Assembly (NCBI RefSeq): GCF_003046545.1
Contig: NZ_QAAA01000001.1
Span: 248,001-312,000, forward strand
Reading direction: 5' to 3'
Source: Rhodovulum imhoffii
GTDB lineage: Bacteria > Pseudomonadota > Alphaproteobacteria > Rhodobacterales > Rhodobacteraceae
Length of the DNA stretch: 64,000 nt
Positions 30,565 through 55,890 of the stretch are shown here, piece after piece. The stretch's first letter is position 1, and each line of letters begins with the position of its first letter. Under the pieces are notes generated by a model. The model was not told the DNA's origin. It did not search any database and was given only the letters and a program-made list of their open reading frames with translations. The position numbers and the translations under genes were made by a program.

Positions 30565-30654
30565 GGAGGAGTGGCAGAGTGGTCGATTGCACCGGTCTTG
30601 AAAACCGGCGTGCGTGAAAGCGTACCGTGGGTTCGAATCCCACCTCCTCCGCCA
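30565..30654 (+). tRNA. tRNA-Ser (anticodon UGA)
   Basis: A 90-nt cloverleaf: acceptor GGAGGAG pairs with CTCCTCC (30644-30650), discriminator G, encoded CCA at 30652-30654. The anticodon stem CCGGT/ACCGG encloses loop CTTGAAA with anticodon TGA at 30599-30601. A long variable arm and T-loop GGTTCGAATCC are present, as in serine tRNAs. It marks the left edge of the accessory DNA. Confidence 0.97.
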
Positions 30655-30702: not shown

Positions 30703-31062
30703 CCGTTGTTTTCTAGGGTTATGCGGGTGAGGCTGAGCACTGGCGTCCTCAGCACAGCAGCCGGACACATTCTCTTGAGCCCGATATTCTCCGGACCTCT
30801 CGACTGCGCGCATTCGGTGTAGAGCCCGTAACCAGTTGAAAGCATAGGGACAGTTCCTCCCAACACCTGAACACTTCGATGCCAGAGGCGTTCGACGGGA
30901 AGGAACCGGGGGCGAACTACTGGTCGGGACTTGCAGATCGCAAGGGTCTCCTCGCTCAATGGATATTGCTAAGGCCTCAGGAAGCAAGCGGAGCCCACGC
31001 TCCTTGACGCAGGAATAGAACAGCATCACGGTGAAAACCGAAGTGAAGCGATCAACCAGAAC
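30703..31062. other. Non-coding boundary, tRNA-Ser to defence island
   Basis: About 360 nt without a convincing gene on either strand. A minus-strand open frame crosses it but reads through the ATPase gene and has no family features. Composition shifts here toward lower GC than the core genes. It may contain the junction of the acquired DNA, but no direct repeat of the tRNA 3' end was found elsewhere in the window. Confidence 0.5.
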
Positions 31063-32418
31063 ATGAGCCGTATTCCTATGCCGAACGAAGAACTGCACAT
31101 TGATGCGATGCCGACAAAGGCATTCTTTGTCGACATGCTGGTTCGGGATATCCCCTTGGAGCGTGCCGTACTTGACTTGGTCGACAATTGTATTGATGGC
31201 GCGAAACGCATGCGCCCCGGAGAAGAGCCCGATTTTCACGGGCTTAACGTTTCGGTCCACTTGGACGGGGACGGGTTTGAGATTGCAGACAATTGTGGCG
31301 GCTTCGATGTGGAAACCGCTCGGAATTATGCCTTCCGGTTCGGCAGGCCCGAAAAAGCAGCGTCCACCGACTATTCGATAGGCCAATTCGGCGTTGGAAT
31401 GAAGCGCGCCCTGTTCAAATTCGGACGCTATTTCGAAGTGCATTCCACCACCACCAAACAAAGATGGTCGATGCATGTCGATGTAGACACCTGGGAACGG
31501 GACGAGGGAAACTGGTATTTTGACTTCGCGAATGTTGAAGAGGGTCAATTTGCAGACGCCGAAGTAGGGACAAGAATCATAGTTAAGCGCCTGCGGCCGG
31601 AGGTCTCGCGTCAGTTTGCATCTGAGCACTTCAAGCGCCAGCTCTCCGAGATGATCCGCTCACACCAGCGGCAGTTTCTGGCTTTTGGCCTGGCAATAGA
31701 TTTCGGCGGTTTGCACTTGACTAACACGGACCTTCGCATTCGGTCAGGCGGTCAGTTTAATCCAGCAATCGAGGAGTTTGCCGTCGATGATGACACCGAT
31801 GCACCCGTAAACGTCCGTATCGTCGCAGGTATCTCGGAGTCCTCTCCTACAGCCGCTGGCTGGTATGTAATCTGCAATGGCCGGGTGATCCTTTCAGCGG
31901 ATAGATCCGAGTCAACCGGATGGAACTCCGTTGCCGAACAGAAGGACGGAATACCCAAATACCACAACCAATACGCCCGATTTCGTGGTGCTGTTTTCTT
32001 CAGTTGCCGCGATTCAAAAAAGCTCCCATGGAACACGACCAAAACCGGTCTCGATGCGTCCACTACGGTTTGGCAACTGACCTTCCCCAAGATGCTGGAT
32101 CACACTCGAACGGTCATCAATTTCTTGAACGCTCTTGACAACAGCATTGAGGAATATGGCGCGAAAGCGTCGCCCTTGTTGGTCGCGCTCAACAAGGAGA
32201 CGTTAGCGAAGGAAGTCGAGAAGTTTCGGGGCCCGGCGACGTTCTCTTGGAACCGAACTCCCCAAGTGCCTGGGCCCAAGACGATCAAAATACAGTACTC
32301 GAGAGAGGAGACAAAGATTCAGAGCCTTATGACCGCGTTGGGCGTCACTTCGGCGAAAGCGGTTGGAGAAAAGACTTTCGATATCATTTTCGAAGAGCAG
32401 GGTGGTGAAGATCAATGA
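31063..32418 (+). CDS. GHKL (Hsp90/MutL/MORC-like) ATPase, restriction-associated
   Basis: A 451-aa cytoplasmic protein. Bergerat-fold motifs: helix with LVDNCIDGA (Asp41-Asn42), ADNCGGFD (75-82) and lid GQFGVGMKRAL (107-117). The rest (about 180-440) has no recognised domain; a predicted transducer region is likely around 160-330. Such ATPases clamp on DNA or remodel partners using ATP. The start ATG has no strong Shine-Dalgarno; ATG 31078 is an alternative. It overlaps the next gene by 4 nt, so the two probably form one functional pair. Codon use is visibly less GC-biased than in neighbouring core genes, suggesting recent transfer. Confidence 0.8.
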   Translation: MSRIPMPNEELHIDAMPTKAFFVDMLVRDIPLERAVLDLVDNCIDGAKRMRPGEEPDFHGLNVSVHLDGDGFEIADNCGGFDVETARNYAFRFGRPEKAASTDYSIGQFGVGMKRALFKFGRYFEVHSTTTKQRWSMHVDVDTWERDEGNWYFDFANVEEGQFADAEVGTRIIVKRLRPEVSRQFASEHFKRQLSEMIRSHQRQFLAFGLAIDFGGLHLTNTDLRIRSGGQFNPAIEEFAVDDDTDAPVNVRIVAGISESSPTAAGWYVICNGRVILSADRSESTGWNSVAEQKDGIPKYHNQYARFRGAVFFSCRDSKKLPWNTTKTGLDASTTVWQLTFPKMLDHTRTVINFLNALDNSIEEYGAKASPLLVALNKETLAKEVEKFRGPATFSWNRTPQVPGPKTIKIQYSREETKIQSLMTALGVTSAKAVGEKTFDIIFEEQGGEDQ

Positions 32419-33383
32419 CCGCCAGCTATAGGATTATTGACTATTCGCTACGGCCAGCGAAATTCGCCGAGAGAAAAATGCTCAGCGAAATATTCTCAAG
32501 ATTAAAAGTCTTCGCTTCACTTGAAAGCTATCGCTACATCGGTTTTGGCTCAATTTGGTTTTCGGATTGCATTCTATTCCACAAAGCCCTTGGCGTCGAA
32601 GATGTCATTTCCATCGAAAAAGAGCAGGCACATAAGGCCCGATTTGAATTCAACAAGCCGTATAAAGGCATTCGACTCATGATGGGGTCTGCGGCAGATG
32701 TCTTGCCAGGACTGGATTGGGCGCATCGTTCCATAGTGTGGCTCGACTACGATGACCCGCTCAACCCAGGGATTCTGGACGACGTCAGAACAGTTGCGAC
32801 GCGTGCAACCAGCGGGACGGTTCTGGCCGTCTCTGTGCAGGCTGAAGGCCTTGTGGACAAGCGACCTCATTTGGAGGAACCGCTGGAGATTACATCCGCT
32901 CAGGGATTTCGCGATTGTTTCGGCGATGCTCGCACACCACAAGACCTTGAACCAGCGGGTCTGCGCGGATGGTCGCTTTCCAAAACATCTCGACGGATAA
33001 TTCGCGACGAGATCGACGCAGGGCTTCATTCCGTTAACGCAGGGCGCAATCCCGGGCAAGTCCTGCGCTTTAATCAAATCAGCGCTTTCGAATACGCCGA
33101 TGGTGCAAAGATGACGACTATTGTCGGGGTGTTTGTCGACCATGGCCAAAACGGTCATTTCGAGGCTGCTGGCTTTCGTACCCTACCTTTCTTTCGCGAT
33201 GGTGACGAAGCCTTGCGGGTTAAGGTTCCGATGCTCACGCCCCGAGAAATGCGCCACCTGGACCGCAGCCTTCCCTGTCACGATTCTGGGCAACTGGACT
33301 TGGGCCCAATCCCAGAGGCGGACGGAAAACACTACGCGAAGCTCTACCGATACCTGCCGAATTTTGCCTCGTTCGAGCAGTAG
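32415..33383 (+). CDS. Methyltransferase-fold protein paired with GHKL ATPase
   Basis: A 322-aa protein. The Rossmann MTase pattern is visible: YIGFGS (41-46, motif I-like), acidic end of strand 2 VISIEKE (Glu68), and IVWLDYDDPL (107-116) in the position of motif IV. DYDDPL resembles but does not equal the (D/N)PP(Y/F) motif of amino-methyltransferases, so it may modify something other than DNA bases, or be a sensor. The last 150 residues are unassigned. Translationally coupled to the ATPase gene. I do not recognise a characterised homologue. Confidence 0.65.
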   Translation: MTASYRIIDYSLRPAKFAERKMLSEIFSRLKVFASLESYRYIGFGSIWFSDCILFHKALGVEDVISIEKEQAHKARFEFNKPYKGIRLMMGSAADVLPGLDWAHRSIVWLDYDDPLNPGILDDVRTVATRATSGTVLAVSVQAEGLVDKRPHLEEPLEITSAQGFRDCFGDARTPQDLEPAGLRGWSLSKTSRRIIRDEIDAGLHSVNAGRNPGQVLRFNQISAFEYADGAKMTTIVGVFVDHGQNGHFEAAGFRTLPFFRDGDEALRVKVPMLTPREMRHLDRSLPCHDSGQLDLGPIPEADGKHYAKLYRYLPNFASFEQ

Positions 33384-33501
33384 CGGTTGGACAAGCAGCT
33401 CGGATCGAAGACTTCAGTGGAAGATCTAGCAGGGAATCGAAGTGCTTCGCAGTTTTCTTCTACGGATTGGGATTGATTGGATGCTTACGCTTGGGCGATA
33501 A

Positions 33502-34374
33502 GTGCTTGAGTTCCAAGTGGGAAGAGGTCGATTGGCACGCTCGCAGAAAACAAAGGTCGTGGAGCACCTGTTTGGCAAGTACTGGAACGCTTCGACGGGC
33601 GCTCTGGACAAGAGCCTTATGAGCTTGGACGACGTCGCGCAGGCCATTCGCGAGTGCAACGATCTTTACGGCTCGACGCTCAGCGACCGAAATCCTGCGA
33701 ATTTCATGAAAGATCTGCTGCGCGGCGCAAATGCCTCCAGCAACTGGCCGACCTCGGTCGCGGCCAAACGCTTCGCCGCGGTCCAGCGGACCGGCGACGG
33801 AGAGTGCTTCGAGTTCATACCCTACCGACCAGGACAGACCGAGCCGTTCCCCGATGCGTTCGGAGTTCGCGAAGATGCGCCGCGGTATCCAGTCCAGTCG
33901 ATTAGTATTCCGCTCGTTACCAAGTCGCTGGGGCGTTCCGACGAAACCTGGTTGGTTCAAACTGCGATCAACCTGCGTGTTGTGGAGACCCATTTCGCGG
34001 TGGCAGCCGCGTTTCCATTGCTCGAACTTGCCCATCTTCAAATGGGGATCAAGCTGCGCTCGACTGAAATCGACGCCCTCTTTCTTGGCAAGACCGGCGA
34101 TCCGCAACGCCCGGAATCCGTTCTGGTCACCTGCGAAGCGAAGCAGGCCAAGGACCCGCTTATTCAGAGTCAGATTATCAACCAAGTCCGTGCCGCCTTC
34201 GCGGAAGCGGAGGTGGACACGGTCGTTCCCATCGGTTTGCGGACGATCAAAGGCGTCGGGTTCTACCTGACCGAGTTCACTGCCGTGAAGCGGTCGGAAG
34301 TGTCGGCGCTGGAGGAATTGACCCTAGCCAGCGACGCCATCTACGAGTTGCGCCCCCCTGTGAAGGGCATATGA
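33502..34374 (+). CDS. Type II restriction endonuclease, PD-(D/E)XK
   Basis: About 290 aa. Nuclease core: Glu189-Ile-Asp191 (STEIDALFLG), a loop, then SVLVTCEAKQ with Glu212-Ala-Lys214, followed by a helix with Gln-rich QSQIINQV, a standard PD-(D/E)XK layout. GTG 33502 is the outermost start; TTG 33532 is an alternative that follows GGAAGAGG. It faces the dcm gene and overlaps its 3' end by 51 nt. It probably cleaves the sequence protected by that C5-methyltransferase. The recognition site cannot be inferred. Confidence 0.75.
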   Translation: MLEFQVGRGRLARSQKTKVVEHLFGKYWNASTGALDKSLMSLDDVAQAIRECNDLYGSTLSDRNPANFMKDLLRGANASSNWPTSVAAKRFAAVQRTGDGECFEFIPYRPGQTEPFPDAFGVREDAPRYPVQSISIPLVTKSLGRSDETWLVQTAINLRVVETHFAVAAAFPLLELAHLQMGIKLRSTEIDALFLGKTGDPQRPESVLVTCEAKQAKDPLIQSQIINQVRAAFAEAEVDTVVPIGLRTIKGVGFYLTEFTAVKRSEVSALEELTLASDAIYELRPPVKGI

Positions 34375-35637
34375 AGCCTCGATCTCTTCCTGTTTCCGCT
34401 TTCGCGCACCGCTCTTCTTGTCGCGGCGTCCGATAGGGTTCTGGATATCGAAATACGCAGCGGCCTCGGTGTTCCCCATACTCAGGAGCTTTTCGTCGCC
34501 GAGATCCACAGCCTCGGTCGGTCGCGTGGGGCGGACCCCCAGCGCAGCGATAACGACGCTGGCTACCGCACGCGCCAGCGGGGGTGGCACTGAGTTTCCG
34601 ATCTGGCGAGCACCATGCCATTTGGTAACGTTGAAGCGAAACCAGTCTGGAAAGCCGTGGAGGCGCGCCATTTCGCGCACAGTTACGCACCGGTCGAACG
34701 CGTAGTGAATCGGTCTCGGGCTAGTGAACGCGCCACGAGCAGAATCCGTCCCCGCTCTCAGCGTATTCGAAACGCCGTCGGCCGGCAGCTTGAACAAACG
34801 CGAGATCGGTTCCACGCGACCCTGTTCCGTTTCGCGAAAGCGCCGACGGGAAATCTCGGTGTGTTCAGTACGAGCGCTGGAGGTCAGTTTCTTCGGATCC
34901 CAATTCCGAGGGTGACCATACGCCCATGCGTCGTTGCCAAGGCCCCGCAGCGGCTCGGCGTAGGTGCTGGGCTTTCCGAAGGCCGCTGTCTTGATGGAGT
35001 CGGAATTTCGAAGGCGCTCGAACTCCTCTGCGTTTGGAAGATCGGCAAGAGCGTCCTGACAGGTCGGGCGTTCTGCGATTGCCTTGGGGTAGTCCGGAAG
35101 AGAGCGGCCCTTCTTTGCTCCCATCAAGATCAAGCGCTGACGATCCTGCGGCACGCCATAGTCAGCCGCGTTCAGAACCCGCCAGTCGCGTTGAACAGAG
35201 TAGCCGATTTCTTCGAATTCCTCGATCAGTTCGAAAAGAAACTTACGGTGCTTGCCTACAGTTAGCCCCTTCACGTTCTCGAAAACGAAGTAGTTCGAAT
35301 CCAGTTCGCGAACCAAACGTACGAAATCCTTCACCAGCGCGTTTCGCGGGTCGTCGAGAGCGCGCTGCCCGATCAATGAGAACCCCTGACATGGAGCTCC
35401 GCCGAACACGACATCGACCGTCCGATCGCCAATCCCGGCCTCGGCGCGGATATCCTCGCCGGAGACGTCCGTCACCGATCGAGGGATGACCGCGCAGTCC
35501 GGGAAATTGAACTTGTGGACCGCAGCATGAACGGGATCGATCTCGACAGCTGCAACGACATCGAAACCGGCCTGCTCGAAGCCAAGGCTCATACCGCCCG
35601 CGCCTGCGAACAAATCGATTCCAATAGGTCTTGCCAT
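34324..35637 (-). CDS. dcm: DNA (cytosine-5) methyltransferase of the R-M system
   Basis: A 437-aa C5-methyltransferase. Start ATG 35637 follows GGAGG by 7 nt. Motif I IDLFAGAGGMSLGFEQAG (7-24), catalytic Cys83 in GGAPCQGFS, motif VI FENVKG (119-124), QDRQRLILMGAK (VIII) and the C-terminal RQIGNSVPPPLA (X). The target-recognition region lies between VIII and IX. It is followed by about 60 residues of basic tail that overlap the restriction gene antisense. A functional partner of the facing REase is likely. Confidence 0.92.
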   Translation of the reverse strand: MARPIGIDLFAGAGGMSLGFEQAGFDVVAAVEIDPVHAAVHKFNFPDCAVIPRSVTDVSGEDIRAEAGIGDRTVDVVFGGAPCQGFSLIGQRALDDPRNALVKDFVRLVRELDSNYFVFENVKGLTVGKHRKFLFELIEEFEEIGYSVQRDWRVLNAADYGVPQDRQRLILMGAKKGRSLPDYPKAIAERPTCQDALADLPNAEEFERLRNSDSIKTAAFGKPSTYAEPLRGLGNDAWAYGHPRNWDPKKLTSSARTEHTEISRRRFRETEQGRVEPISRLFKLPADGVSNTLRAGTDSARGAFTSPRPIHYAFDRCVTVREMARLHGFPDWFRFNVTKWHGARQIGNSVPPPLARAVASVVIAALGVRPTRPTEAVDLGDEKLLSMGNTEAAAYFDIQNPIGRRDKKSGARKRKQEEIEASYALHRGAQLVDGVAG

Positions 35638-35698
35638 GCCGCCGCCTCCAACGTTTTCGCCCAACATATCGGTGTGCCGCTCGCTTGACCAGCGAAAC

Positions 35699-36106
35699 CT
35701 AGCTTCTCAGGAAGGCTTCCACACGGCCGACGGCTCCTTCGAGGTCCCTCAGTTCGCACTGCCAGACAACGAGCGGCTCCCATCCAGCTTCCCGCAACTC
35801 AGTTAAGGCTCTCTTATCACGTTCTCTGTTTGTTTCAATCTTCGGCTTCCAGTACTCCGGCCTAGACTTCGGCAGTTGGCCCCACTTGCAGCCATGGCCA
35901 TGCCAGAAGCAGCCATGCACGAACACGACCTTCTTCCGCGACGGGAACACGATGTCGGGGCTGCCCGGAAGATCGCGACGATGGAGCCTGAAGCGATATC
36001 CGAGCCGGTGAAGGGCGCGGCGCAGGGCGAGTTCAGGCTTTGTGTCCTTCTGGCGGACCATCGACATTATGTACGAGCGGCGGTCCGCAGTTACGTGGTC
36101 AGCCAT
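35699..36106 (-). CDS. vsr: Very short patch repair endonuclease Vsr
   Basis: A 135-aa nickase that repairs T:G mismatches arising by deamination of 5-methylcytosine at Dcm sites. Motifs: DRRSYIMSMVRQKDTKPE, LPGSPDIVF (Asp51), FVHGCFWHGHGCKW (zinc and active-site region). Start ATG 36106 overlaps the stop of the J-protein gene by 1 nt; the frame extends further upstream but only as antisense of that gene. It lies 61 nt before dcm, its expected partner. Confidence 0.93.
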   Translation of the reverse strand: MADHVTADRRSYIMSMVRQKDTKPELALRRALHRLGYRFRLHRRDLPGSPDIVFPSRKKVVFVHGCFWHGHGCKWGQLPKSRPEYWKPKIETNRERDKRALTELREAGWEPLVVWQCELRDLEGAVGRVEAFLRS

Positions 36107-38223
36107 CACGATGGACGCATGGGAATTGCCTGGAACGGATCGCCGGGTCTCTTCGGAACCGCGCGGATCCCACGGAAGCTCCCCCGTTGCGTCCGCGTTT
36201 CCACGACGACGTCGCCATTGTCGACATACGCCCGCCGGATGGGCGCCTTGGTCAGGGCGATCCCCAGCGGCCGGCCATCTTCCGTGAAGACGCGAACGCC
36301 CTTGCCTTCGACCAGGAGGACCATGCCTCCGCTGACGAGCAGATCGCATTTTGGCGAACAATCATGCAACGCGATCAGGCGGTCGCCGTCGAGCACATAG
36401 AGACGCGTCGTGGTCATCACATAGAGGAAGGATTCGGTCTCAACGATGCGGACAGGCACGGAGCCCACGTCGTAGATCGTGGTCGGCGAGCCGCTGCGGT
36501 CCACCCGCACCACCCGCCCGGCATAGGTGCCGAGCAGAGCGGTTTCTCCCGTCCCGGAGAAGGCTGCGGCATAGATCCAGTCAGCCTCGGCCGCGGGGCC
36601 AAAGCTGATCACGATTTCAAAACCGGCTTCACCTCCTCCACTTCCGTCCAGCTGCTCAGGATCGAGGCCGGTTAGCCGCTCAGATGCGACATTCACGGCC
36701 TTCATCCTCTCTTCGTTTCCGGGACTCACGTCAGGGTGCAGTTCACGCACGAGCTGCCGGTACCGCTTCCGGATCTCGTCGGGCGTGACCGGCATCTGAA
36801 GACCCATGACCTGTAGGGCTTGATCGATTTCCGCCGCGGTCCCGAAGCTGGAGCCGCCCACCCTGATGCGGGTCGGCTCTTTCGCCGGCATCCTGAGCCC
36901 CCATAGGCGCTCTCCTTCCCGGTTAAAGCACCACGCTTCGTCGACGTGAGTGAAGAGGTAGCGGTTTCGATCCGGTGTCAGTGCTATACAGCGCAGGGCG
37001 CGATGTGCCTCGCTTTCTGCTAAGCCGAGGCGTTCGCGGTTGGCGGCGACTTCTGGGGCGGCCTCTAGATCTGTCTCGAAATCGATGGCGAGGTCGCCAC
37101 GATAGACGGTCATCACACCGCTCTTCGAGCGCAGCGCGAAGCCCTCGCCCTCTGGATGAACGGAGATGTGGTAGGCATCGCGGTGTAGGGGCACCGGTGT
37201 CCCAGGTCGTCCGCTCGCGTCGCTGAACATCACCGCTCCAGGAGCGCCCAGGCTGGCTTCTGACTTCGCAAGATCGTCGAACGACAGTGCGCCGCCACGC
37301 GTGCTGTAGTGCTTGCGAAAGGCCGGATCCGGTCGATCCGATTTTTCAATTGTCTTGACGACAATTTCGCTCCAGCCCCCCTGAGGGTCTGCAAAAGCTT
37401 CCTCGGTGGCAGGCAGCTCGACGGGTCGCTCCCACGCATTCGGCGAAGGCGGAAGCGGCACGATGTTCACACGCTTTGGGTCGAGTTCGTGCGGACGCCC
37501 GGCGCTTCGGTCGCGTCGGTGCGATCCCGGCCTTGCTGGTTCATTGTAGATCGTCGCGGCAGAGGCCTTGGGCATCTCGGCATCGGCGAGGTAGAGCTCA
37601 TAGGTCTTTCCGCTCTTCGCGCGACGGACTTCTCCCGACTTCTCGAGGTAGGAGATGAGCCGACTGGCGCGGCGCCCGTCATCGACGCCCAGCACGGTTT
37701 TGATCCGGCTTTGCAGGATGCCCGGACTTGCGCGGATCGCTTCCCGGAGCCGGTCGAAAAGGTCGAGGTCGACGAAGTGTTCCTCCGCCTCGGTTCGGTA
37801 AGCTTGCAGATGGTCGAAACTCTGCACCAGGTCCCGCAACTCGCAGAGTCCGTCCCGATCTCCGACGATGGCCATCGTCGTTCCGCCGTGCGACAGGGCC
37901 GGAATCCGAATGTCGAGCCGCTTCCCGTCGCCTTGAGGATCTTTCAGCCAGTCGCGCAGCAGCGGTAGACTTGCGCGCGCGGCTGCGGCCGCGGTCACAT
38001 AGTCCTTTGCGGAAACCGAGGAGGTGAAACGTTCGAGCTGCGCGAAATAGAGCTGCCCGGGCAGAGAAGGGTCCGCCATCCGGAGGATCTCAGGCTGCGG
38101 CTCGGCAGCGGCCCTACTGCAAGGCTCATCTCGCGCAGTATCCAGTGCCTTGGACTCGCGGGCAGAAGATCCGCCAAATAACCATCTGAAAATGCCCGAC
38201 ATGATACGCCCCAATATCCCCAA
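36106..38223 (-). CDS. J-domain and beta-propeller-like protein of the defence island
   Basis: A 705-aa protein. The N-terminus (MGILGRIMSGIFRWLFGG) is amphipathic and may attach to membrane. The middle has a winged-helix-like segment (about 165-215: LQSRIKTVLGVDDGRRASRL). A J-domain sits at about 470-520 with MPVTPDEIRKRYRQLVRELHPDVSPGN; the HPD tripeptide is at about 497-499, as needed to stimulate Hsp70. Strand-rich repeats follow to the end and also precede the J-domain, compatible with a propeller. It is the first gene of the vsr-dcm operon (1-nt overlap with vsr). A role in restriction is inferred from linkage. Confidence 0.75.
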   Translation of the reverse strand: MGILGRIMSGIFRWLFGGSSARESKALDTARDEPCSRAAAEPQPEILRMADPSLPGQLYFAQLERFTSSVSAKDYVTAAAAARASLPLLRDWLKDPQGDGKRLDIRIPALSHGGTTMAIVGDRDGLCELRDLVQSFDHLQAYRTEAEEHFVDLDLFDRLREAIRASPGILQSRIKTVLGVDDGRRASRLISYLEKSGEVRRAKSGKTYELYLADAEMPKASAATIYNEPARPGSHRRDRSAGRPHELDPKRVNIVPLPPSPNAWERPVELPATEEAFADPQGGWSEIVVKTIEKSDRPDPAFRKHYSTRGGALSFDDLAKSEASLGAPGAVMFSDASGRPGTPVPLHRDAYHISVHPEGEGFALRSKSGVMTVYRGDLAIDFETDLEAAPEVAANRERLGLAESEAHRALRCIALTPDRNRYLFTHVDEAWCFNREGERLWGLRMPAKEPTRIRVGGSSFGTAAEIDQALQVMGLQMPVTPDEIRKRYRQLVRELHPDVSPGNEERMKAVNVASERLTGLDPEQLDGSGGGEAGFEIVISFGPAAEADWIYAAAFSGTGETALLGTYAGRVVRVDRSGSPTTIYDVGSVPVRIVETESFLYVMTTTRLYVLDGDRLIALHDCSPKCDLLVSGGMVLLVEGKGVRVFTEDGRPLGIALTKAPIRRAYVDNGDVVVETRTQRGSFRGIRAVPKRPGDPFQAIPMRPS

Positions 38224-38295: not shown

Positions 38296-38679
38296 TCAGG
38301 AAAGCAGCGCCATCTGTGATCGCCACTCCAACGGAAATGGCTCCATGAACCACTTCAACGTGACGTCCGAGCTCTGTTTCCCTTCGAGGATAGCTTCGAC
38401 GATGTCGGGCGCAAGCAGCGTAAGGCGCAAGACACGGGCCATGTAGGTGAAGGCAATCGCCTCGCGCTCGGCCAATTCCGCGATGGTGGCGTATTCGCCC
38501 GACTCGAGCATCCGCTTCCATCGGAACGCACGGGCCAGCGCCTTGACCAGCGTGTTGTCAGTCCGCTGCGAGTGCGTGGCGCATTCGGGCATCTGCATCT
38601 CTTTCTTCCCGCCGCGTTTCACGATGCGGAACGGGACATGGAGCGTCACAGTCTCCGAGATCGGCGTGCTGCGGGTCAT
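38296..38679 (-). CDS. Small helix-turn-helix-like protein of the recombinase module
   Basis: A 127-aa protein. The centre (about 55-95) reads AKRAFRWKRMLESGE-like helices followed by ATIAELAEREAIAFTYMARV, a likely helix-turn-helix. Genes of this type regularly follow DUF2924/recombinase pairs in alphaproteobacterial phages. Its start overlaps the recombinase stop by 4 nt. It may be a recombination directionality or repressor protein; not proven. The 72-nt gap to the J-protein gene has no strong terminator, so the operon may continue into the defence genes. Confidence 0.7.
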   Translation of the reverse strand: MTRSTPISETVTLHVPFRIVKRGGKKEMQMPECATHSQRTDNTLVKALARAFRWKRMLESGEYATIAELAEREAIAFTYMARVLRLTLLAPDIVEAILEGKQSSDVTLKWFMEPFPLEWRSQMALLS

Positions 38680-39998
38680 GCGGCCTCGATGCCGGCGGCC
38701 AGCATCTCGCGGGCCAGGCTGCCGAGCCCATCGACGCGGAGCCGGACGCTCAGCCCGTCCGTGCCTATCTCCACCCGTTCAACCAGCAGCGCCACGATGC
38801 GCGCCTGTTCGGCGGGGAATAGTTCATCCCAAAGTGGGTCGAGCTGCTGCAGGGCCGCGCGGGCGTCAGATTCGGTGATGTCTTCGTCGTGTGCTCGCGC
38901 CGCCTTCCACGTCCCAGCCACGATCTCGGGTTGGCGGAACACGGCGCGGAGTTGGCCGATGGCTGCGGCCTCGATATCGCCTGCGGGTACGCGACCGATG
39001 GGACACGCCCCCGCGCCGTGCTTGAGTACCGTCTGGCTGACGTAGTAGCGGTAGAGTTTGCCGCCCTTGCGGGTGTGTGTCGGCGAGAACGCGGCTCCAT
39101 CGGGACCGAACAGCAGCCCCTTCAGCAGCGCGGGCGTCTCGGCACGGGTCCGAGCCGCCCGTTTGCGCGGACTCTCTTGCAAGATCAAATGGACCCGTTC
39201 CCATGTCTCACCGTCGATGATCGCATCGTGCTCGCCGGGGTAGCTGTCGCCCCTGTGGACCGCCTCGCCGATGTACGTACGGTTTGAGAGCATCCGGTAG
39301 AGATACTTCTTGTCGATCCGGTTGCCGCGTGGCGTGCGGATGCCGCATGTGCCGACCTCCCGCGCCAGTTCCGTGCAGGATCCGATCTCGATGAATCTGG
39401 CGAAGATCCAGCGCACATGCGCGGCGGTGTCCTCGTCGACGAGCAGCTTCCGGTTTTCCACCCGATAGCCGAAAGGCGGTACCCCGCCCATCCACATCCC
39501 CTTCTTGCGGCTGGCGGCGACCTTGTCGCGGATGCGCTCGGCCGTCACCTCGCGCTCGAACTGCGCGAAGGAGAGCAGGATGTTCAGCGTCAGTCGGCCC
39601 ATGGAAGTCGTCGTGTTGAAGGACTGCGTGACCGAGACGAAGGTCACGCCGTTCCGGTCAAACACCTCGACCAGCTTGGCGAAATCCGCCAGCGACCGGC
39701 TGAGGCGGTCGATCTTGTAGACCACCACCACATCGACCAGCCCGTCCTCGATGTCGGCCATCAGTCGCTTCAGGCCGGGGCGTTCCAGCGTGCCGCCCGA
39801 TATGCCGCCGTCGTCATACTGATCGCGGACCAGCACCCAGCCCTCGGAACGCTGGCTGGCGATGTACGCCTCGCAGGCTTCGCGTTGGGCATGAAGGCTG
39901 TTGAATTCCTGCTCCAGCCCTTCCTCGGAGGATTTACGGGTGTAGACGGCGCACCGCAGCTTGCGGACGACCTTCGATTTTTCGGGCGGCTTCGTCAT
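38676..39998 (-). CDS. Large serine recombinase (phage integrase)
   Basis: A 440-aa site-specific recombinase; start 39998 after GGGGGCGGAC. The resolvase domain begins CAVYTRKSSEEGLEQEF with nucleophile Ser23 (YxRxS pattern) and has VVVYKIDRLSRSLADF and LSFAQFEREVTAERIRDK. A Recombinase domain (GGVPPFGYRVE onward) and a zinc-ribbon-like region follow, then a C-terminal coiled-coil segment. It would integrate and, with a directionality factor, excise the prophage. It overlaps DUF2924 and the downstream gene by 4 nt each. Confidence 0.93.
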   Translation of the reverse strand: MTKPPEKSKVVRKLRCAVYTRKSSEEGLEQEFNSLHAQREACEAYIASQRSEGWVLVRDQYDDGGISGGTLERPGLKRLMADIEDGLVDVVVVYKIDRLSRSLADFAKLVEVFDRNGVTFVSVTQSFNTTTSMGRLTLNILLSFAQFEREVTAERIRDKVAASRKKGMWMGGVPPFGYRVENRKLLVDEDTAAHVRWIFARFIEIGSCTELAREVGTCGIRTPRGNRIDKKYLYRMLSNRTYIGEAVHRGDSYPGEHDAIIDGETWERVHLILQESPRKRAARTRAETPALLKGLLFGPDGAAFSPTHTRKGGKLYRYYVSQTVLKHGAGACPIGRVPAGDIEAAAIGQLRAVFRQPEIVAGTWKAARAHDEDITESDARAALQQLDPLWDELFPAEQARIVALLVERVEIGTDGLSVRLRVDGLGSLAREMLAAGIEAA

Positions 39999-40450
39999 GT
40001 CCGCCCCCTGTGGTTCTTGAGGCCGAAAAAGACCCAGCCGTTCCAGCGCGTGCCGGTGATCGCGCGGGCGATGGCGGACAGCGACTTGTAGGAGCGTCCC
40101 TGCCATTCGAAGCCATCGGCGGTGACCGTGACGACATACTCGACGCCCTGCCATTCACGCAGGAGGCGCGTGCCGGTGATGGGGCGGTCGCGGTCGAGGC
40201 GCAGTCCGCGCTTCTTCTTGTCGCCACCGTCAAGTTCCTCACCCAGCCGCTCCAAACGCCGGATGGTCTCCGGCTTCAGCCCGCCATAGGCGAGTTCCTG
40301 GATGCGGTAGGCCAGGCGGGATTCGAGGTAGCGTCGGTTGAACGGCGGCGGCTCGCTGTCGAACAACTCGCGCCACTGCTTCTTCAGGTCAGGCGTCGGG
40401 GTGGTCTTCAACGCGGCAAGGCGCGCGGGGATGGGGTCGTGAGTCGTCAT
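39995..40450 (-). CDS. DUF2924 protein of the recombinase module
   Basis: A 151-aa basic protein; start 40450 after ACGGAGAAAAC. Signature stretches are KKQWRELFDSEPPPFNRRYLESRLAYRIQELAYGG and RSYKSLSAIARAITGTRWNGWVFFGL, the latter resembling a RAMA-like fold often seen beside restriction and recombination genes. It lies directly before the serine recombinase (4-nt overlap) and is thought to assist integration or bind DNA. Function unknown. Confidence 0.88.
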   Translation of the reverse strand: MTTHDPIPARLAALKTTPTPDLKKQWRELFDSEPPPFNRRYLESRLAYRIQELAYGGLKPETIRRLERLGEELDGGDKKKRGLRLDRDRPITGTRLLREWQGVEYVVTVTADGFEWQGRSYKSLSAIARAITGTRWNGWVFFGLKNHRGRT

Positions 40451-40650
40451 GTTTTCTCCGTTGAGTTCGGGGTTGCATGACGGCACTGGTCGGCCTGATA
40501 GTGTAGGCGAATTTCTCCAGTATCGTCAGAAGGTTCGCCCCGATTTCGCCGCATCAGGCGGACCAGGCCGAGGGCGAGCAGGCCACACAGCTCAGTGCGG
40601 CGTTCGGCGGGCGTCATCTGAGCGGGCGGGAGCGGATTGGGGCGTTTCAT
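40447..40650 (-). CDS. Small basic phage protein upstream of DUF2924
   Basis: A 67-aa protein, MKRPNPLPPAQMTPAERRTE followed by a helix LCGLLALGLVRLMRR. This conserved short gene typically begins the recombinase operon. It overlaps DUF2924 by 4 nt and starts 17 nt from a perfect inverted repeat (40668-40686). No function known. Confidence 0.75.
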   Translation of the reverse strand: MKRPNPLPPAQMTPAERRTELCGLLALGLVRLMRRNRGEPSDDTGEIRLHYQADQCRHATPNSTEKT

Positions 40651-40842: not shown

Positions 40843-43086
40843 ATGGCGCGAAAGGCATCCCCGGTTGGCCCGCACATCCATAGCCTGATCGAGGATGCCC
40901 GCATTGACCTCGTCCGGGCCGTCCTCGCGGTGCGAGAGGGCGACAACGAGCCCGATTTCGGCCTGCCCACAGATATTCCAGATCCCTCGGACGAGGAATT
41001 GGCTCACGGGTTTCGGCAGAGCCTGTTGCAGATCTTATCGAAATTCGATGCAGACGAATTGCGGCCCGCCGAGCAGAGATCACGCCGCGTCCTGGCGCTC
41101 TCCGAAGGCAAGGGTATCGATTCGCTCACGGCAATCACCGAACAACAACTCGACGATGAGCAAACGCTCGAGTTCGATCGGCAACCCGATCCGCTCTGCA
41201 AGAGCATCTGGGCATTTCTGAATGCCCGCCAGACATTCGAAGATGCCGAGAGTTTCCACTTCGCTCGAAAATTCAGGGACTATGGCAAGCTTTACGATGC
41301 CTTTGAGGTGGAACTGGAAAAGGCGGTCAACCTCAATTCAGGGTCGATCGACGAGAAAGCTCTGGCCGCGAAGATTACGGCGGTGCTGCAACTCAAGACC
41401 GCCTGCACGGTGAAAGCGCTGGATTTGCCCGCCACTGCCGCGCACCCAGCCTCGATCATGCTGATCGTTCGCCATGGCGGGCCGCTGTCGAGCGTCCATG
41501 ACCATCGTGACGACGGACGCCGGGGCACGATCTATTATCGCCCGCCGAACGAGGCCACTCTCATCTACACGCCCGCCATCCGACAGATCGAGGTCTGCGC
41601 GGACAGCCCGGTGGTGCGGCAGGGCGTTGCAGGGTCATTCGCTGAGGAGGCCTTGGGGCACGACGTTTCACAGAAACCGCTGACCTGGAAGCGCTACAAC
41701 CTTTCGCGATTCCGCAGTTCGCTGCGGCTCGATCTGCCGCGTATCTCTGGCTACGAGATCACGGACGCTCGTGTCCTCGAGGCTGAAATCCGCCTTGGCT
41801 CATGGAGCCGGAAGCTTCTTCTCAAAGTGGCGGCCGACGACGACATCGAGGAGGTCGCCGACCGCTATCTGAAGCCCAACAACATCTTCCGCCGCGCCGA
41901 TGGCTTCAGCCGCGTGGGGATCGCCGTCAGCTACAATCGCATCGGTGACGACAAGGTGCGCACGCTCAACATTACCATTTCCGGCTCGAAGAGCTGCAAC
42001 CTTCAGAGCAACAAGGATCCCGATGAACGCAATCTCGGGTTCGCGCTTCTCGACGCCTGGGGCATTCTCAGCGCCTTCAAGCAGATCGAGCCCACCGACC
42101 TTCGCGGGATCTTCCCGCAACTGGTCATGCTTCACGACCGGATCGAGGACGTTGTCAGCGGAGAGCATTTGCGCGAAATCGGTCTCGATCCGGATCGCAT
42201 GATTCAGGGTGGTCTTCTCGACCGCCGGGGGCGCCAAGACATCGTGCTCATCGACGATGACGACATGGGCGGCGAAGCCGAGGTCAAGCCATCCGGCCTC
42301 GAGGGCATGTCGCGCGTCGTCGGAGCCTTCGGAAAGGATGGGGGCCTGAGGCCGACATCGGATCTCGAGATGTACGAGATCAACCGCGAGTGGTTGCACG
42401 AAACCGTGGTTGGGCTTTTGAAGCCGTTGCTGAACAAGCTCGCGGCGCAGGTGCTGGATCCGGACCTGTCGCTGCTCGGCTCCATGCGGATCGACGGTGC
42501 CGATGTTCCGATCTACTTCGCCCGCCGCCTTCACGACCTCAAGACGATTTCGCGCCTAGACCAGCTGATGCGCGCGCGCAACGCGGCAGGCGTCGGAATC
42601 GTGCTGTCGGCCAGCACTGAAGGTCCCGGATACCTGGGGCCGAACCTCGTCGTCCCCGTTTCTGGTTGCATCTCAACCGGCACAGACGATCTTCTTCTCT
42701 CCCGAGATGCGCTCGAACTCGCCTACCGAACCAATCGTTCTCTGGCGCGGGGTGGTGCGACACCGCAGGTCCTTCGATCGGGCACGCAATCGGCGACGTT
42801 GCACATTCCTGGCAAGACATCGCTCGCGCTGACGGGTGCGGATCAGATCACGATCTTCGAACGACTGGTCGCGGCCGAGAAGGCTGGCAGCCCCGATGTC
42901 CAGGTCAAGCAGCTGATGGAAGGACTTGGGTCGCGCAGTCCGCAGCAGGCCTTCCGGAAGGAAACCTGGGACAGCATCCGCGACGTCTACATCGGCGCGG
43001 GCGCGAAACGGGGATACTGGCGCCTTCTCGTTGAAGCACAGCCAGCCGAAGACGTAGCCGAAGCCCCGGTCGAGGAACCCGTCTAA
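40843..43086 (+). CDS. 747-aa protein of unknown function, prophage cargo candidate
   Basis: A large soluble, acidic protein with no signal peptide or membrane helix. GAGGTGG lies shortly before the ATG. The N-terminal third is helical. The middle (about 230-420) has alternating strands, such as GRRGTIYYRPPNEATLIYT. An acidic run IDDDDMGG lies near residue 470. The C-terminus (about 680-730) reads ERLVAAEKAGSPDVQVKQLMEGLGS, which could be a helix-turn-helix. No ATPase, nuclease or protease motif could be identified. It is oriented away from the integrase module and is not needed for the phage life cycle, so a lysogenic-conversion or defence role is plausible. Unassigned. Confidence 0.75.
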   Translation: MARKASPVGPHIHSLIEDARIDLVRAVLAVREGDNEPDFGLPTDIPDPSDEELAHGFRQSLLQILSKFDADELRPAEQRSRRVLALSEGKGIDSLTAITEQQLDDEQTLEFDRQPDPLCKSIWAFLNARQTFEDAESFHFARKFRDYGKLYDAFEVELEKAVNLNSGSIDEKALAAKITAVLQLKTACTVKALDLPATAAHPASIMLIVRHGGPLSSVHDHRDDGRRGTIYYRPPNEATLIYTPAIRQIEVCADSPVVRQGVAGSFAEEALGHDVSQKPLTWKRYNLSRFRSSLRLDLPRISGYEITDARVLEAEIRLGSWSRKLLLKVAADDDIEEVADRYLKPNNIFRRADGFSRVGIAVSYNRIGDDKVRTLNITISGSKSCNLQSNKDPDERNLGFALLDAWGILSAFKQIEPTDLRGIFPQLVMLHDRIEDVVSGEHLREIGLDPDRMIQGGLLDRRGRQDIVLIDDDDMGGEAEVKPSGLEGMSRVVGAFGKDGGLRPTSDLEMYEINREWLHETVVGLLKPLLNKLAAQVLDPDLSLLGSMRIDGADVPIYFARRLHDLKTISRLDQLMRARNAAGVGIVLSASTEGPGYLGPNLVVPVSGCISTGTDDLLLSRDALELAYRTNRSLARGGATPQVLRSGTQSATLHIPGKTSLALTGADQITIFERLVAAEKAGSPDVQVKQLMEGLGSRSPQQAFRKETWDSIRDVYIGAGAKRGYWRLLVEAQPAEDVAEAPVEEPV

Positions 43087-54867: not shown

Positions 54868-55890
54868 ATGCATGACCTGGCTTTACCTTCCTCCGGACGC
54901 GCTTCCGGAACCGGAGACGCATGCATGTTCGGCCTCTCTCTCTGCTCCGGCGCAGGCGGCCTTGACCTCGGGCTCACCATCGCCATCCCCGGATATCGTG
55001 CTGTGGGCCATGTCGAACGGGAAACCTACGCCGCAGCCACTCTCGTGGCGCGGATGGAAGACGCGTCCCTGGATCAGGCTGTTGTCTGGGACGACGTTGG
55101 AACCTTCGACGGCCGCCCGTGGCGCGGCGCGGTGGACATCGTCACTGCGGGCTATCCGTGCCAGCCGTTCTCCGTCGCGGGCAAGCGCCGGGGCGCGGAC
55201 GACCCGCGCCACCTCTGGCCGCATGTCGCCCGCATCATCTGCGAGGTCGAACCGCCCTTCGTCTTCCTCGAGAATGTCGCCCATCATCTCCGCCTCGGCT
55301 TCCCCGAAGTCGCCAGCGGACTGGTCGGCATGGGGTACCGCCTTGCGGCGGGCCTCTTCACGGCGGCGGAAGTCGGTGCGCCGCATCGGCGCGAGCGGCT
55401 CTTCATCCTCGCCCACCGCGAGCGCGACCACCTGGCCGACCCCGCGCGCCTGCTCGGGGACGCGCTCGAGCGGCGGGAACCGGACGGAGATGATGCGGCT
55501 CTGGCCGACGCCACTCGCCGGCGACAGCAAGGGCACGCGGAACCGGACGAGCAATCGCAGCGAGACGGCGCGCCCGCGCAACGACGGGTCCACGCTCTGC
55601 GATGCGACGCGGATGTGGATGACGCCGACGGCGCGGGATCACAAGGACGGGGCGACGAGCCTCGCGAACACGCCGGTGAACGGGCTGCTTGGCCGCCAGG
55701 TCCTGGTGACGCCGACGGCTGGCGGGCGTTCCTGCGACACGCCCCGGACGTTGAACCCGCTGTTCGTCGAGGCGCTGATGGGCTGGCCCACCGGGTGGAC
55801 CGGCTTCGGCTCTGTGGCAACGGAGTGGTCCCGCTGGTCGCGGCGCATGCGCTGCGAACTCTCGCGGCTGAACTGCTGGCCGATGGATGA
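54868..55890 (+). CDS. Phage DNA (cytosine-5) methyltransferase, frame break near 55,440-55,490
   Basis: A 340-aa open frame. The first about 205 residues are a clear C5-methyltransferase: LCSGAGGLDLGL (motif I), AGYPCQPFSVAG with Cys98, FLENVAHH (135-140), APHRRERLFILAH (VIII). ATG 54925 is an alternative start with GGAG upstream. Beyond about 55,490 this frame loses the strong G/C third-position bias, while the +1 frame (55490-55903) gains it and shows the WPTP and GWPTGW repeats usual in phage Dcm C-termini. The end of this frame (LCGNGVVPLVAAHALRTL) still resembles motif X, so the case is ambiguous. Confidence 0.7.
   Translation: MHDLALPSSGRASGTGDACMFGLSLCSGAGGLDLGLTIAIPGYRAVGHVERETYAAATLVARMEDASLDQAVVWDDVGTFDGRPWRGAVDIVTAGYPCQPFSVAGKRRGADDPRHLWPHVARIICEVEPPFVFLENVAHHLRLGFPEVASGLVGMGYRLAAGLFTAAEVGAPHRRERLFILAHRERDHLADPARLLGDALERREPDGDDAALADATRRRQQGHAEPDEQSQRDGAPAQRRVHALRCDADVDDADGAGSQGRGDEPREHAGERAAWPPGPGDADGWRAFLRHAPDVEPAVRRGADGLAHRVDRLRLCGNGVVPLVAAHALRTLAAELLADG

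What the first reader, a model, noticed from the sequence alone, without database searches (positions are those of the whole stretch)
31063..36106. Restriction locus combining GHKL ATPase, MTase-fold protein, PD-(D/E)XK nuclease, Dcm and Vsr
A GHKL ATPase and a coupled MTase-fold protein with a DYDDPL motif (not a standard base-methylase motif) accompany a complete Dcm/Vsr/REase set. GHKL (MutL/MORC-like) ATPases in R-M loci are known, but the role of the pair, and whether it forms a separate anti-phage effector, is not.
Basis: partly seen in the sequence, partly recalled or inferred. Interest (0 to 1): 0.7.

Follow-up and report, generated by a model that had tools for sequence, protein, structure and literature searches.

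The report
MORC-like ATPase with swappable methylase partner
Two tightly linked bacterial genes, a DNA-handling ATPase related to animal MORC proteins and a methyltransferase-like partner, travel and evolve together while the DNA-marking enzyme beside them changes, which suggests that they form the untested attack half of a family of anti-phage systems.

Summary
The genes described are present: GHKL ATPase (31063-32418), PF20553 methyltransferase-fold protein (32415-33383), REase-like ORF (33502-34374, motif only), Dcm and Vsr.

Relatives change the reading. In 33 PF20553 loci (some near-copies) the pair is constant: GHKL lies within -40..+10 bp upstream in 29 of 30 measured. The neighbour varies: C5-cytosine methylase 25, Dnd/Pbe phosphorothioation genes 5, DISARM 1, SNF2/NOV_C 1, undetermined 1. 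Vsr was called in 10 of the 25, REase-like genes of two kinds in 6 of 33.

In one genome GHKL-PF20553-Dcm alone is a 3.7 kb insertion, empty in 5 of 6 congeners. The trio also rides on a Pf phage and ten viral contigs (GHKL cut off in one). No nuclease was recognised in the smallest cassettes.

Distances of the two proteins correlate (r 0.96, 21 loci; 0.88 thinned), PF20553-Dcm less (0.28 or 0.51 by method; 0.10 thinned). The GHKL protein carries the published MORC signature.

Best reading: a sequence-neutral effector docked on exchangeable self-marking enzymes; untested. MORC ATPases in restriction loci are known since 2008; the partner and its exchangeability were not found in the papers searched.

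The parts
31063..32418 (+). MORC-type GHKL ATPase (P0001, 451 aa)
   Evidence: HATPase_c_3 E 4.4e-12; AF2 model best matched by MORC3/MORC4/MORC2, Z 20-22, Hsp90 close behind at 20.1; MORC signature at residues 266-276
31858..31890 (+). MORC signature GhXhhpXXRhl (GWYVICNGRVI) in the S5/transducer domain
   Evidence: motif definition from PMC2292703; present in 27 of 30 family members and 2 of 281 other ORFs
32415..33383 (+). Methyltransf_35 (PF20553) class I methyltransferase-fold protein (P0002, 322 aa)
   Evidence: Pfam E 1.5e-104; AF2 mean pLDDT 85; structural matches to class I MTases, Trm1 over residues 4-315
32745..32762 (+). motif IV DYDDPL of P0002
   Evidence: D111 invariant in 32 of 32, Y112 31 of 32, D113 28 of 32, next two positions variable
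33502..34374 (+). restriction-endonuclease-like ORF with an ExD...ExK pattern (unconfirmed)
   Evidence: no profile match; pattern invariant in an alignment of three
34324..35667 (-). C5-cytosine DNA methyltransferase (Dcm type)
   Evidence: PF00145 E 6.5e-68; TIGR00675
35699..36106 (-). Vsr endonuclease
   Evidence: TIGR00632 E 3e-47, PF03852
30990..35851 (.). cassette: the only block that the fetched 21 kb of Rhabdaerophilum sp. SD176 (L004) shares with the window, 92.4% identity
   Evidence: blastn at E up to 1e-10

Best explanation
The GHKL protein (a prokaryotic MORC) and the PF20553 methyltransferase-fold protein form one co-translated complex that is the effector half of a restriction-like defence system. 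The other half is a DNA-modification enzyme, usually a C5-cytosine methylase, sometimes the Dnd phosphorothioation machinery or DISARM, which marks self DNA and probably also supplies sequence recognition. When that enzyme meets unmarked DNA, the PF20553 protein, with its likely SAM-site residues kept but without a base-methylation motif, would act as adaptor or reader and load the MORC ATPase, which clamps the DNA on ATP binding and either blocks it directly or licenses a nuclease (local REase, Vsr or a host enzyme). Shown here: the pair's conservation, close spacing and co-evolution; exchange of modification partners; the MORC fold and signature; three-gene cassettes without a recognised nuclease. 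Inferred: complex formation, docking, reader role, DNA clamping, anti-phage effect.
For: GHKL precedes PF20553 within -40..+10 bp in 29 of 30 measured loci, at -4 or -1 in 24 of 30. In the same 21 Dcm loci tree distances give GHKL-Mt35 r 0.957, GHKL-Dcm 0.33, Mt35-Dcm 0.275; thinned to 16 loci with plain identity 0.875, 0.30, 0.103. Partner exchange: 25 Dcm, 5 Dnd/Pbe, 1 DISARM, 1 SNF2/NOV_C. The phosphorothioation partner needs 3 changes on the PF20553 tree, 2 forced by well-supported branches; the DISARM locus groups with a Dcm locus at 100/100, though its branch is long. Clean three-gene insertion at an otherwise empty site. Trio in phage PfAC20 and in viral contigs. In L010 dndC-dndD-HerA-pair lies between metabolic genes, with no nuclease directly beside it. 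MORC fold and motif.
Against: No phenotype exists. The window and other loci also hold REase-like, HNH or Mrr genes, so a normal nuclease partner may be the rule and the small cassettes decayed or dependent on distant genes. Nucleases do occur near some non-Dcm loci: PbeA (helicase with an HKD nuclease domain) and an unmatched 341-aa ORF in L008, an MmeI-type enzyme about 5 kb from the pair in L010, MmeI and drmC genes in L003, NOV_C in L028. Small ORFs beside several cassettes have no family match. GHKL-Dcm and Mt35-Dcm correlations are low but not null: 4 and 13 of 2000 permutations reach them; identity distances unthinned give 0.60 and 0.51, and GHKL-Dcm thinned is reached by 25 of 5000; in 8 Vsr-bearing loci GHKL-Dcm is 0.72. 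The clustering of the Dnd label on the tree is not significant (58 of 500 shuffles as low). DISARM rests on one locus. In L002 about 3 kb separates GHKL from a shortened PF20553 ORF; L038 is broken.
Confidence: 0.5

Rival explanations
1. PF20553 is an active methyltransferase acting on nucleic acid (a second DNA mark, or tRNA/rRNA), with the MORC ATPase as its loader; the pair is an extra modification or an RNA-targeting effector, not a restriction module.
For: G43, G45 and E68, likely SAM-site residues, kept in 31, 31 and 32 of 32 rows. Among the best structural matches are RNA methyltransferases; Trm1 (tRNA G26) aligns over residues 4-315 with Z 14.5, 220 residues, rmsd 4.0.
Against: The residues after D-Y-D vary (16 D, 6 G and others), unlike a conserved base-methylase motif IV. 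Profile search of PDB sequences gives one unrelated-looking match at E 0.14. Many matches with near-equal Z show a shared fold only.
Confidence: 0.22
2. Ordinary type II restriction-modification: the ORF at 33502 (or F4, HNH and others elsewhere) is the only restriction enzyme, and the pair is a regulator or booster, comparable to the proposed HEF_HK/Response_reg_2 elements.
For: REase-like ORFs of two kinds in the window, L002, L004, L005, L006 and L022 and HNH or Mrr-type genes in L005, L026, L027. A regulatory role was proposed for the HEF_HK pair (PMC8011034, passages).
Against: Cassettes with no recognised nuclease (L024; L029; L057). The pair also joins Dnd and DISARM, which are not type II systems.
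Confidence: 0.15
3. The MORC protein is a dedicated MutL-like helper for Vsr repair of 5-methylcytosine deamination.
For: Vsr called in the window and 9 other loci; Vsr acts with MutL in E. coli-type short patch repair (PMC2292703).
Against: 15 of 25 Dcm loci have no full Vsr call (L004 keeps a remnant; some contigs end early), and none was called in the Dnd/Pbe or DISARM loci. GHKL-Vsr r 0.58 against GHKL-Mt35 0.97 in the same 8 loci.
Confidence: 0.05

Closest known systems
Prokaryotic MORC / paraMORC ATPases in restriction-modification loci (Iyer, Abhiman, Aravind 2008, PMC2292703)
   Same: GHKL plus S5 architecture, GhXhhpXXRhl signature, neighbourhoods with Dcm and Vsr; DNA looping proposed
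   Different: In the text read, about 70% have an SFII helicase, and no methyltransferase-fold partner, Dnd or DISARM link is described (part 4 of the text and the figures were not seen)
HEF_HK + Response_reg_2 elements next to C5-methylases and Vsr (PMC8011034, passages)
   Same: A GHKL protein paired with a conserved partner beside Dcm, Vsr and HNH
   Different: P0001 and P0002 list neither domain at E up to 1; the partner here is a methyltransferase fold
VcSduA, a GHKL-Shedu fusion once called paraMORC3 (PMC12137116, passages)
   Same: GHKL ATPase needed for phage defence
   Different: Has its own DUF4263 nuclease; P0001 matches only HATPase families
Dnd/Pbe phosphorothioation systems (PMC10853773, passages) and DISARM
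   Same: Modification machinery found beside the pair in 5 loci and 1 locus
   Different: The main text of the Dnd reappraisal has no GHKL, MORC, HATPase, MutL or histidine kinase
MZA defence system (MzaB ATPase)
   Same: Weak NCBIfam match of P0001, E 0.0034, 15.8 bits
   Different: Cut-off is 850 bits; its partners differ (recalled)

Membership tests
Prokaryotic MORC (sensu Iyer 2008) | GHKL ATP-binding motifs | tested here: met
   HATPase_c_3; motif residues in 29 of the 29 rows that cover them, D45 in 28
Prokaryotic MORC (sensu Iyer 2008) | S5-fold domain behind GHKL | tested here: met
   AF2 model (mean pLDDT 76) aligns with MORC3 ATPase-CW over 16-361, Z 22.4, 294 residues, rmsd 3.5; Hsp90 follows at Z 20.1
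Prokaryotic MORC (sensu Iyer 2008) | GhXhhpXXRhl motif | tested here: met
   GWYVICNGRVI at 266-276; 27 of 30 rows; the misses are one truncated row and two that deviate
Methyltransf_35 (PF20553) | curated Pfam cut-off | tested here: met
   350 bits against cut-off 27
Amino DNA methyltransferase (N6A/N4C) | [DNS]PP[YFW] motif IV | tested here: not met
   DYDDPL; positions after D-Y-D not conserved
Type II restriction-modification | DNA methyltransferase | tested here: met
   PF00145
Type II restriction-modification | cognate restriction endonuclease | tested here: inconclusive
   motif only, no profile match
[quoted passage not shown]
   not listed for P0001 or P0002 at E up to 1
Shedu / paraMORC3 | C-terminal DUF4263 nuclease domain | tested here: not met
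   P0001 lists only two HATPase families at E up to 1
Anti-phage defence system | protection against phage | not testable with these tools
   genomic context only

The most novel reading that the evidence does not exclude
A restriction system without a cutting enzyme: the methylase (or Dnd, DISARM) marks self and scans, and the MORC-PF20553 pair entraps or compacts unmarked DNA so that it cannot be replicated or expressed, a bacterial counterpart of MORC silencing. One effector module would then serve cytosine methylation, phosphorothioation and DISARM alike.
Probability: 0.2. Interest if true: 0.92.

Novelty: new variant of a known kind. Interest (0 to 1): 0.68.

Why it matters
Bacterial MORC proteins have been predicted to work in restriction since 2008. 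The three-gene cassettes found here are small enough to test directly whether a MORC-like ATPase restricts DNA, whether it needs a nuclease, and how one effector can serve several DNA marks. An answer would bear on the origin of MORC silencing in animals and plants and on how restriction systems change specificity.

Tried and rejected
Disfavoured: a MutL-like helper for Vsr (no full Vsr call in 15 of 25 Dcm loci nor in the Dnd/Pbe and DISARM loci). Chance neighbourhood: the own genome holds 4 C5-methylase matches, so a random gene would have one within two genes in under 1% of cases (own arithmetic, about 2,900 genes assumed), against 25 of 33. HEF_HK/Response_reg_2 elements: neither domain is listed.

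Led nowhere: P0002 against viral contigs as a single sequence (no relative); PF20553 by name in papers (0 papers); PDB sequence search with both profiles (one match at E 0.14; weak Hsp90 matches for GHKL); profile comparison of the two REase-like families (probability 7%); search for a second copy of the tRNA-Ser end (none); structure search among viral proteins (mostly methyltransferases in general). The VIA list shows many class I methyltransferases with near-equal Z, so Trm1 is named for coverage only.

Weak points: L005/L006/L007, W/L004, L053/L054 and L029/L060 are near-copies, so 33 loci are fewer independent cases. Context from my own ORF calls and BLAST/HMM clusters can miss short genes. 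Pfam was run on chosen neighbours only. L037 (G143) is a GHKL relative without PF20553 (E 2.5e-32, part of the profile), as is a second GHKL in L011. Dropped before the distance counts: L012, L002, L025, L060 (truncated or cut) and the second GHKL of L011; L038 (broken) was not in the trees. L002 was also left out of the Vsr control.
Full report
What is there. The window holds, left to right, a tRNA-Ser (30565-30654), a GHKL ATPase (31063-32418 +), a PF20553 protein (32415-33383 +), a REase-like ORF (33502-34374 +), and on the other strand a Dcm (34324-35667) and a Vsr (35699-36106). G+C falls to 0.52 around the pair against about 0.60-0.71 outside 30-36 kb, as for an acquired piece. The fetched 21 kb of a Rhabdaerophilum contig (L004) shares one single block with the window, 30990-35851, 92.4% identical: the cassette moves as a unit. 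Its right end lies inside Vsr, so L004 keeps only a Vsr remnant.

The two proteins. P0001 has the GHKL residues and, at 266-276, the motif GhXhhpXXRhl that Iyer et al. 2008 give as the mark of MORC proteins against other GHKL proteins (PMC2292703, text parts 1-3 of 4 plus passages). The motif is in 27 of 30 family members and in 2 of 281 other ORFs. Its AlphaFold model (mean pLDDT 76) is best matched by MORC3, MORC4 and MORC2 (Z 20-22), with Hsp90 close behind at 20.1; the sequence motif is what sets it among MORCs. P0002 gives a good model (pLDDT 85) of class I methyltransferase fold. Trm1 and other RNA methyltransferases are among the best matches, Trm1 with the longest alignment among those shown. 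E68, N80, P82, W109, D111, Y227, E278 and P315 are invariant in 32 of 32 rows; G43 and G45 in the 31 rows that reach them. After D-Y-D the positions vary, so DYDDPL is not a conserved motif of the base-methylase kind.

Neighbourhoods. Partners: C5-cytosine methylase in 25, the nearest neighbour of the pair in most and one to three genes away in the rest. Phosphorothioation genes in 5: dndC-dndD-HerA/DndE-type gene directly before the pair in L009, L010 and L014; a decayed copy of this order (dndD and HerA pieces, broken pair) in L038; PbeA-PbeC, with divergent dndC/dndD, in L008. DISARM in 1: drmD, MmeI-type methylase, the pair, drmA, a DUF1998 gene (drmB by position) and drmC on a Microvirga terrae plasmid. 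SNF2 helicase with NOV_C in 1. One contig (L007) ends too early. Vsr was called in 10 of 25; the two REase-like families in 6 of 33 (window, L002, L004, L005, L006, L022). The converse: with the GHKL profile at E up to 1e-10, 5 of 372 genomes of the class match, four with the PF20553 pair and one partial relative without it.

The smallest unit. In genome G298 the stretch between aspS and an alpha/beta hydrolase gene holds GHKL, PF20553 and Dcm and little else (3.67 kb). In 5 of 6 other genomes of that genus the two flanking genes are direct neighbours; in the sixth they are about 1 kb apart. The Pf phage PfAC20 carries the same three genes. Its describers report a cytosine methyltransferase there as an incomplete restriction-modification system (PMC11878078, passages); the record has two genes so named. 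In viral contigs the trio abuts baseplate genes (L051, L057, L058) or lies one short ORF from an integrase (L055). Of the 10 viral contigs, 10 have the Dcm next to the pair or one gene (Vsr, L058) away, and 9 of 9 with upstream sequence have GHKL. Among the viral neighbours scanned no nuclease family was found, but several short ORFs have no match at all.

Nucleases near other loci. They exist: PbeA, described as an HKD nuclease fused to a helicase (PMC10853773, passages), and an unmatched 341-aa ORF in L008; an MmeI-type enzyme about 5 kb from the pair in L010, beyond a GH57-type gene; MmeI and drmC in L003; NOV_C in L028; Mrr and HNH genes in L026, HNH in L027 and L005. In L010 the genes directly outside dndC-dndD-HerA-pair-aminotransferase are metabolic ones; in L014 this was seen on the right side only. 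So a nuclease-free state is supported for the smallest Dcm cassettes and not shown in general.

Co-evolution. Tree distances of GHKL and PF20553 correlate at 0.911 over 28 loci (0 of 2000 permutations as high), and at 0.957 in the 21 Dcm loci; there GHKL-Dcm is 0.33 (4 of 2000) and PF20553-Dcm 0.275 (13 of 2000). Plain identity distances give 0.957, 0.599 and 0.514 unthinned; thinned to 16 loci 0.875 (0 of 5000), 0.300 (25 of 5000) and 0.103 (871 of 5000). A control shows that Dcm distances do carry signal: Dcm-Vsr 0.824 in 8 loci, where GHKL-Dcm is 0.72. So close relatives keep their Dcm, and over longer spans it is exchanged. On the PF20553 tree the phosphorothioation label needs 3 changes, 2 forced by starred branches, with L008 inside a well-supported group with the window; the shuffle test for clustering is not significant (58 of 500 as low) and is not claimed.

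Mechanism. If the methylase changes while the pair stays, the pair can hardly carry the site specificity; that would come from the modification enzyme. I therefore infer that the pair docks on whichever enzyme scans and marks DNA, and acts when a site is unmarked. MORC ATPases elsewhere entrap and condense DNA (C. elegans MORC-1, stated in the abstract of PMC8277788, search listing), and a GHKL-Shedu protein gives ATPase-dependent phage defence (PMC12137116, passages). Clamping and blocking, or clamping and calling a nuclease, are both open.

Novelty. In the listings of nine paper searches (titles and opening abstracts) and in the passages opened, I saw no description of the PF20553-MORC pair, nor of MORC with Dnd or DISARM; the 2024 Dnd reappraisal lacks the relevant terms in its main text. 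The library lacks most subscription papers, and the figures of the 2008 paper could not be seen, so the pair may be drawn there unnamed. PHROGs already hold both proteins as families of unknown function (phrog_20521, phrog_19983). I rate it a new variant of a known kind, with a bold reading (restriction without cutting) that the smallest cassettes leave open.

Noticed in passing
36106-38223 (-): A 705-aa protein with a DnaJ domain (PF00226 E 3e-8) whose stop overlaps the start of Vsr; no relative among the ORFs clustered from the other loci.
   Followed up: partly
38676-40486 (-): Large serine recombinase next to a DUF2924 protein, between the restriction cassette and phage-like genes; no second copy of the tRNA-Ser end in the window.
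   Followed up: partly
43000-64000 (+): ORFs that look by eye like a prophage (helicase, terminase, portal, protease) with a second C5-methylase match at 54934-55434.
   Followed up: no
40843-43086 (+): 747-aa protein with no Pfam match at E up to 1 and only phrog_37634 of unknown function.
   Followed up: no
L009 6043-7713, L010 7132-8616, L014 7042-8640: HerA-like ATPase just before the pair in the dnd loci; a DndE domain was found at its N-terminus in L009 and L014, DndH/HerA models in L009 and L010.
   Followed up: partly
L011 12440-14170; L037 6800-8392: Related GHKL proteins of 576 and 530 aa without a PF20553 gene directly behind them and with longer C-terminal regions.
   Followed up: partly
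L005 11205-12833: DUF6119 protein (PF19614 E 6e-119) between the pair and the F4 REase-like gene.
   Followed up: no
L026 6666-7883: AspBHI-type Mrr endonuclease gene directly beside the Dcm of this locus, odd since AspBHI enzymes are recalled to need modified cytosine.
   Followed up: no
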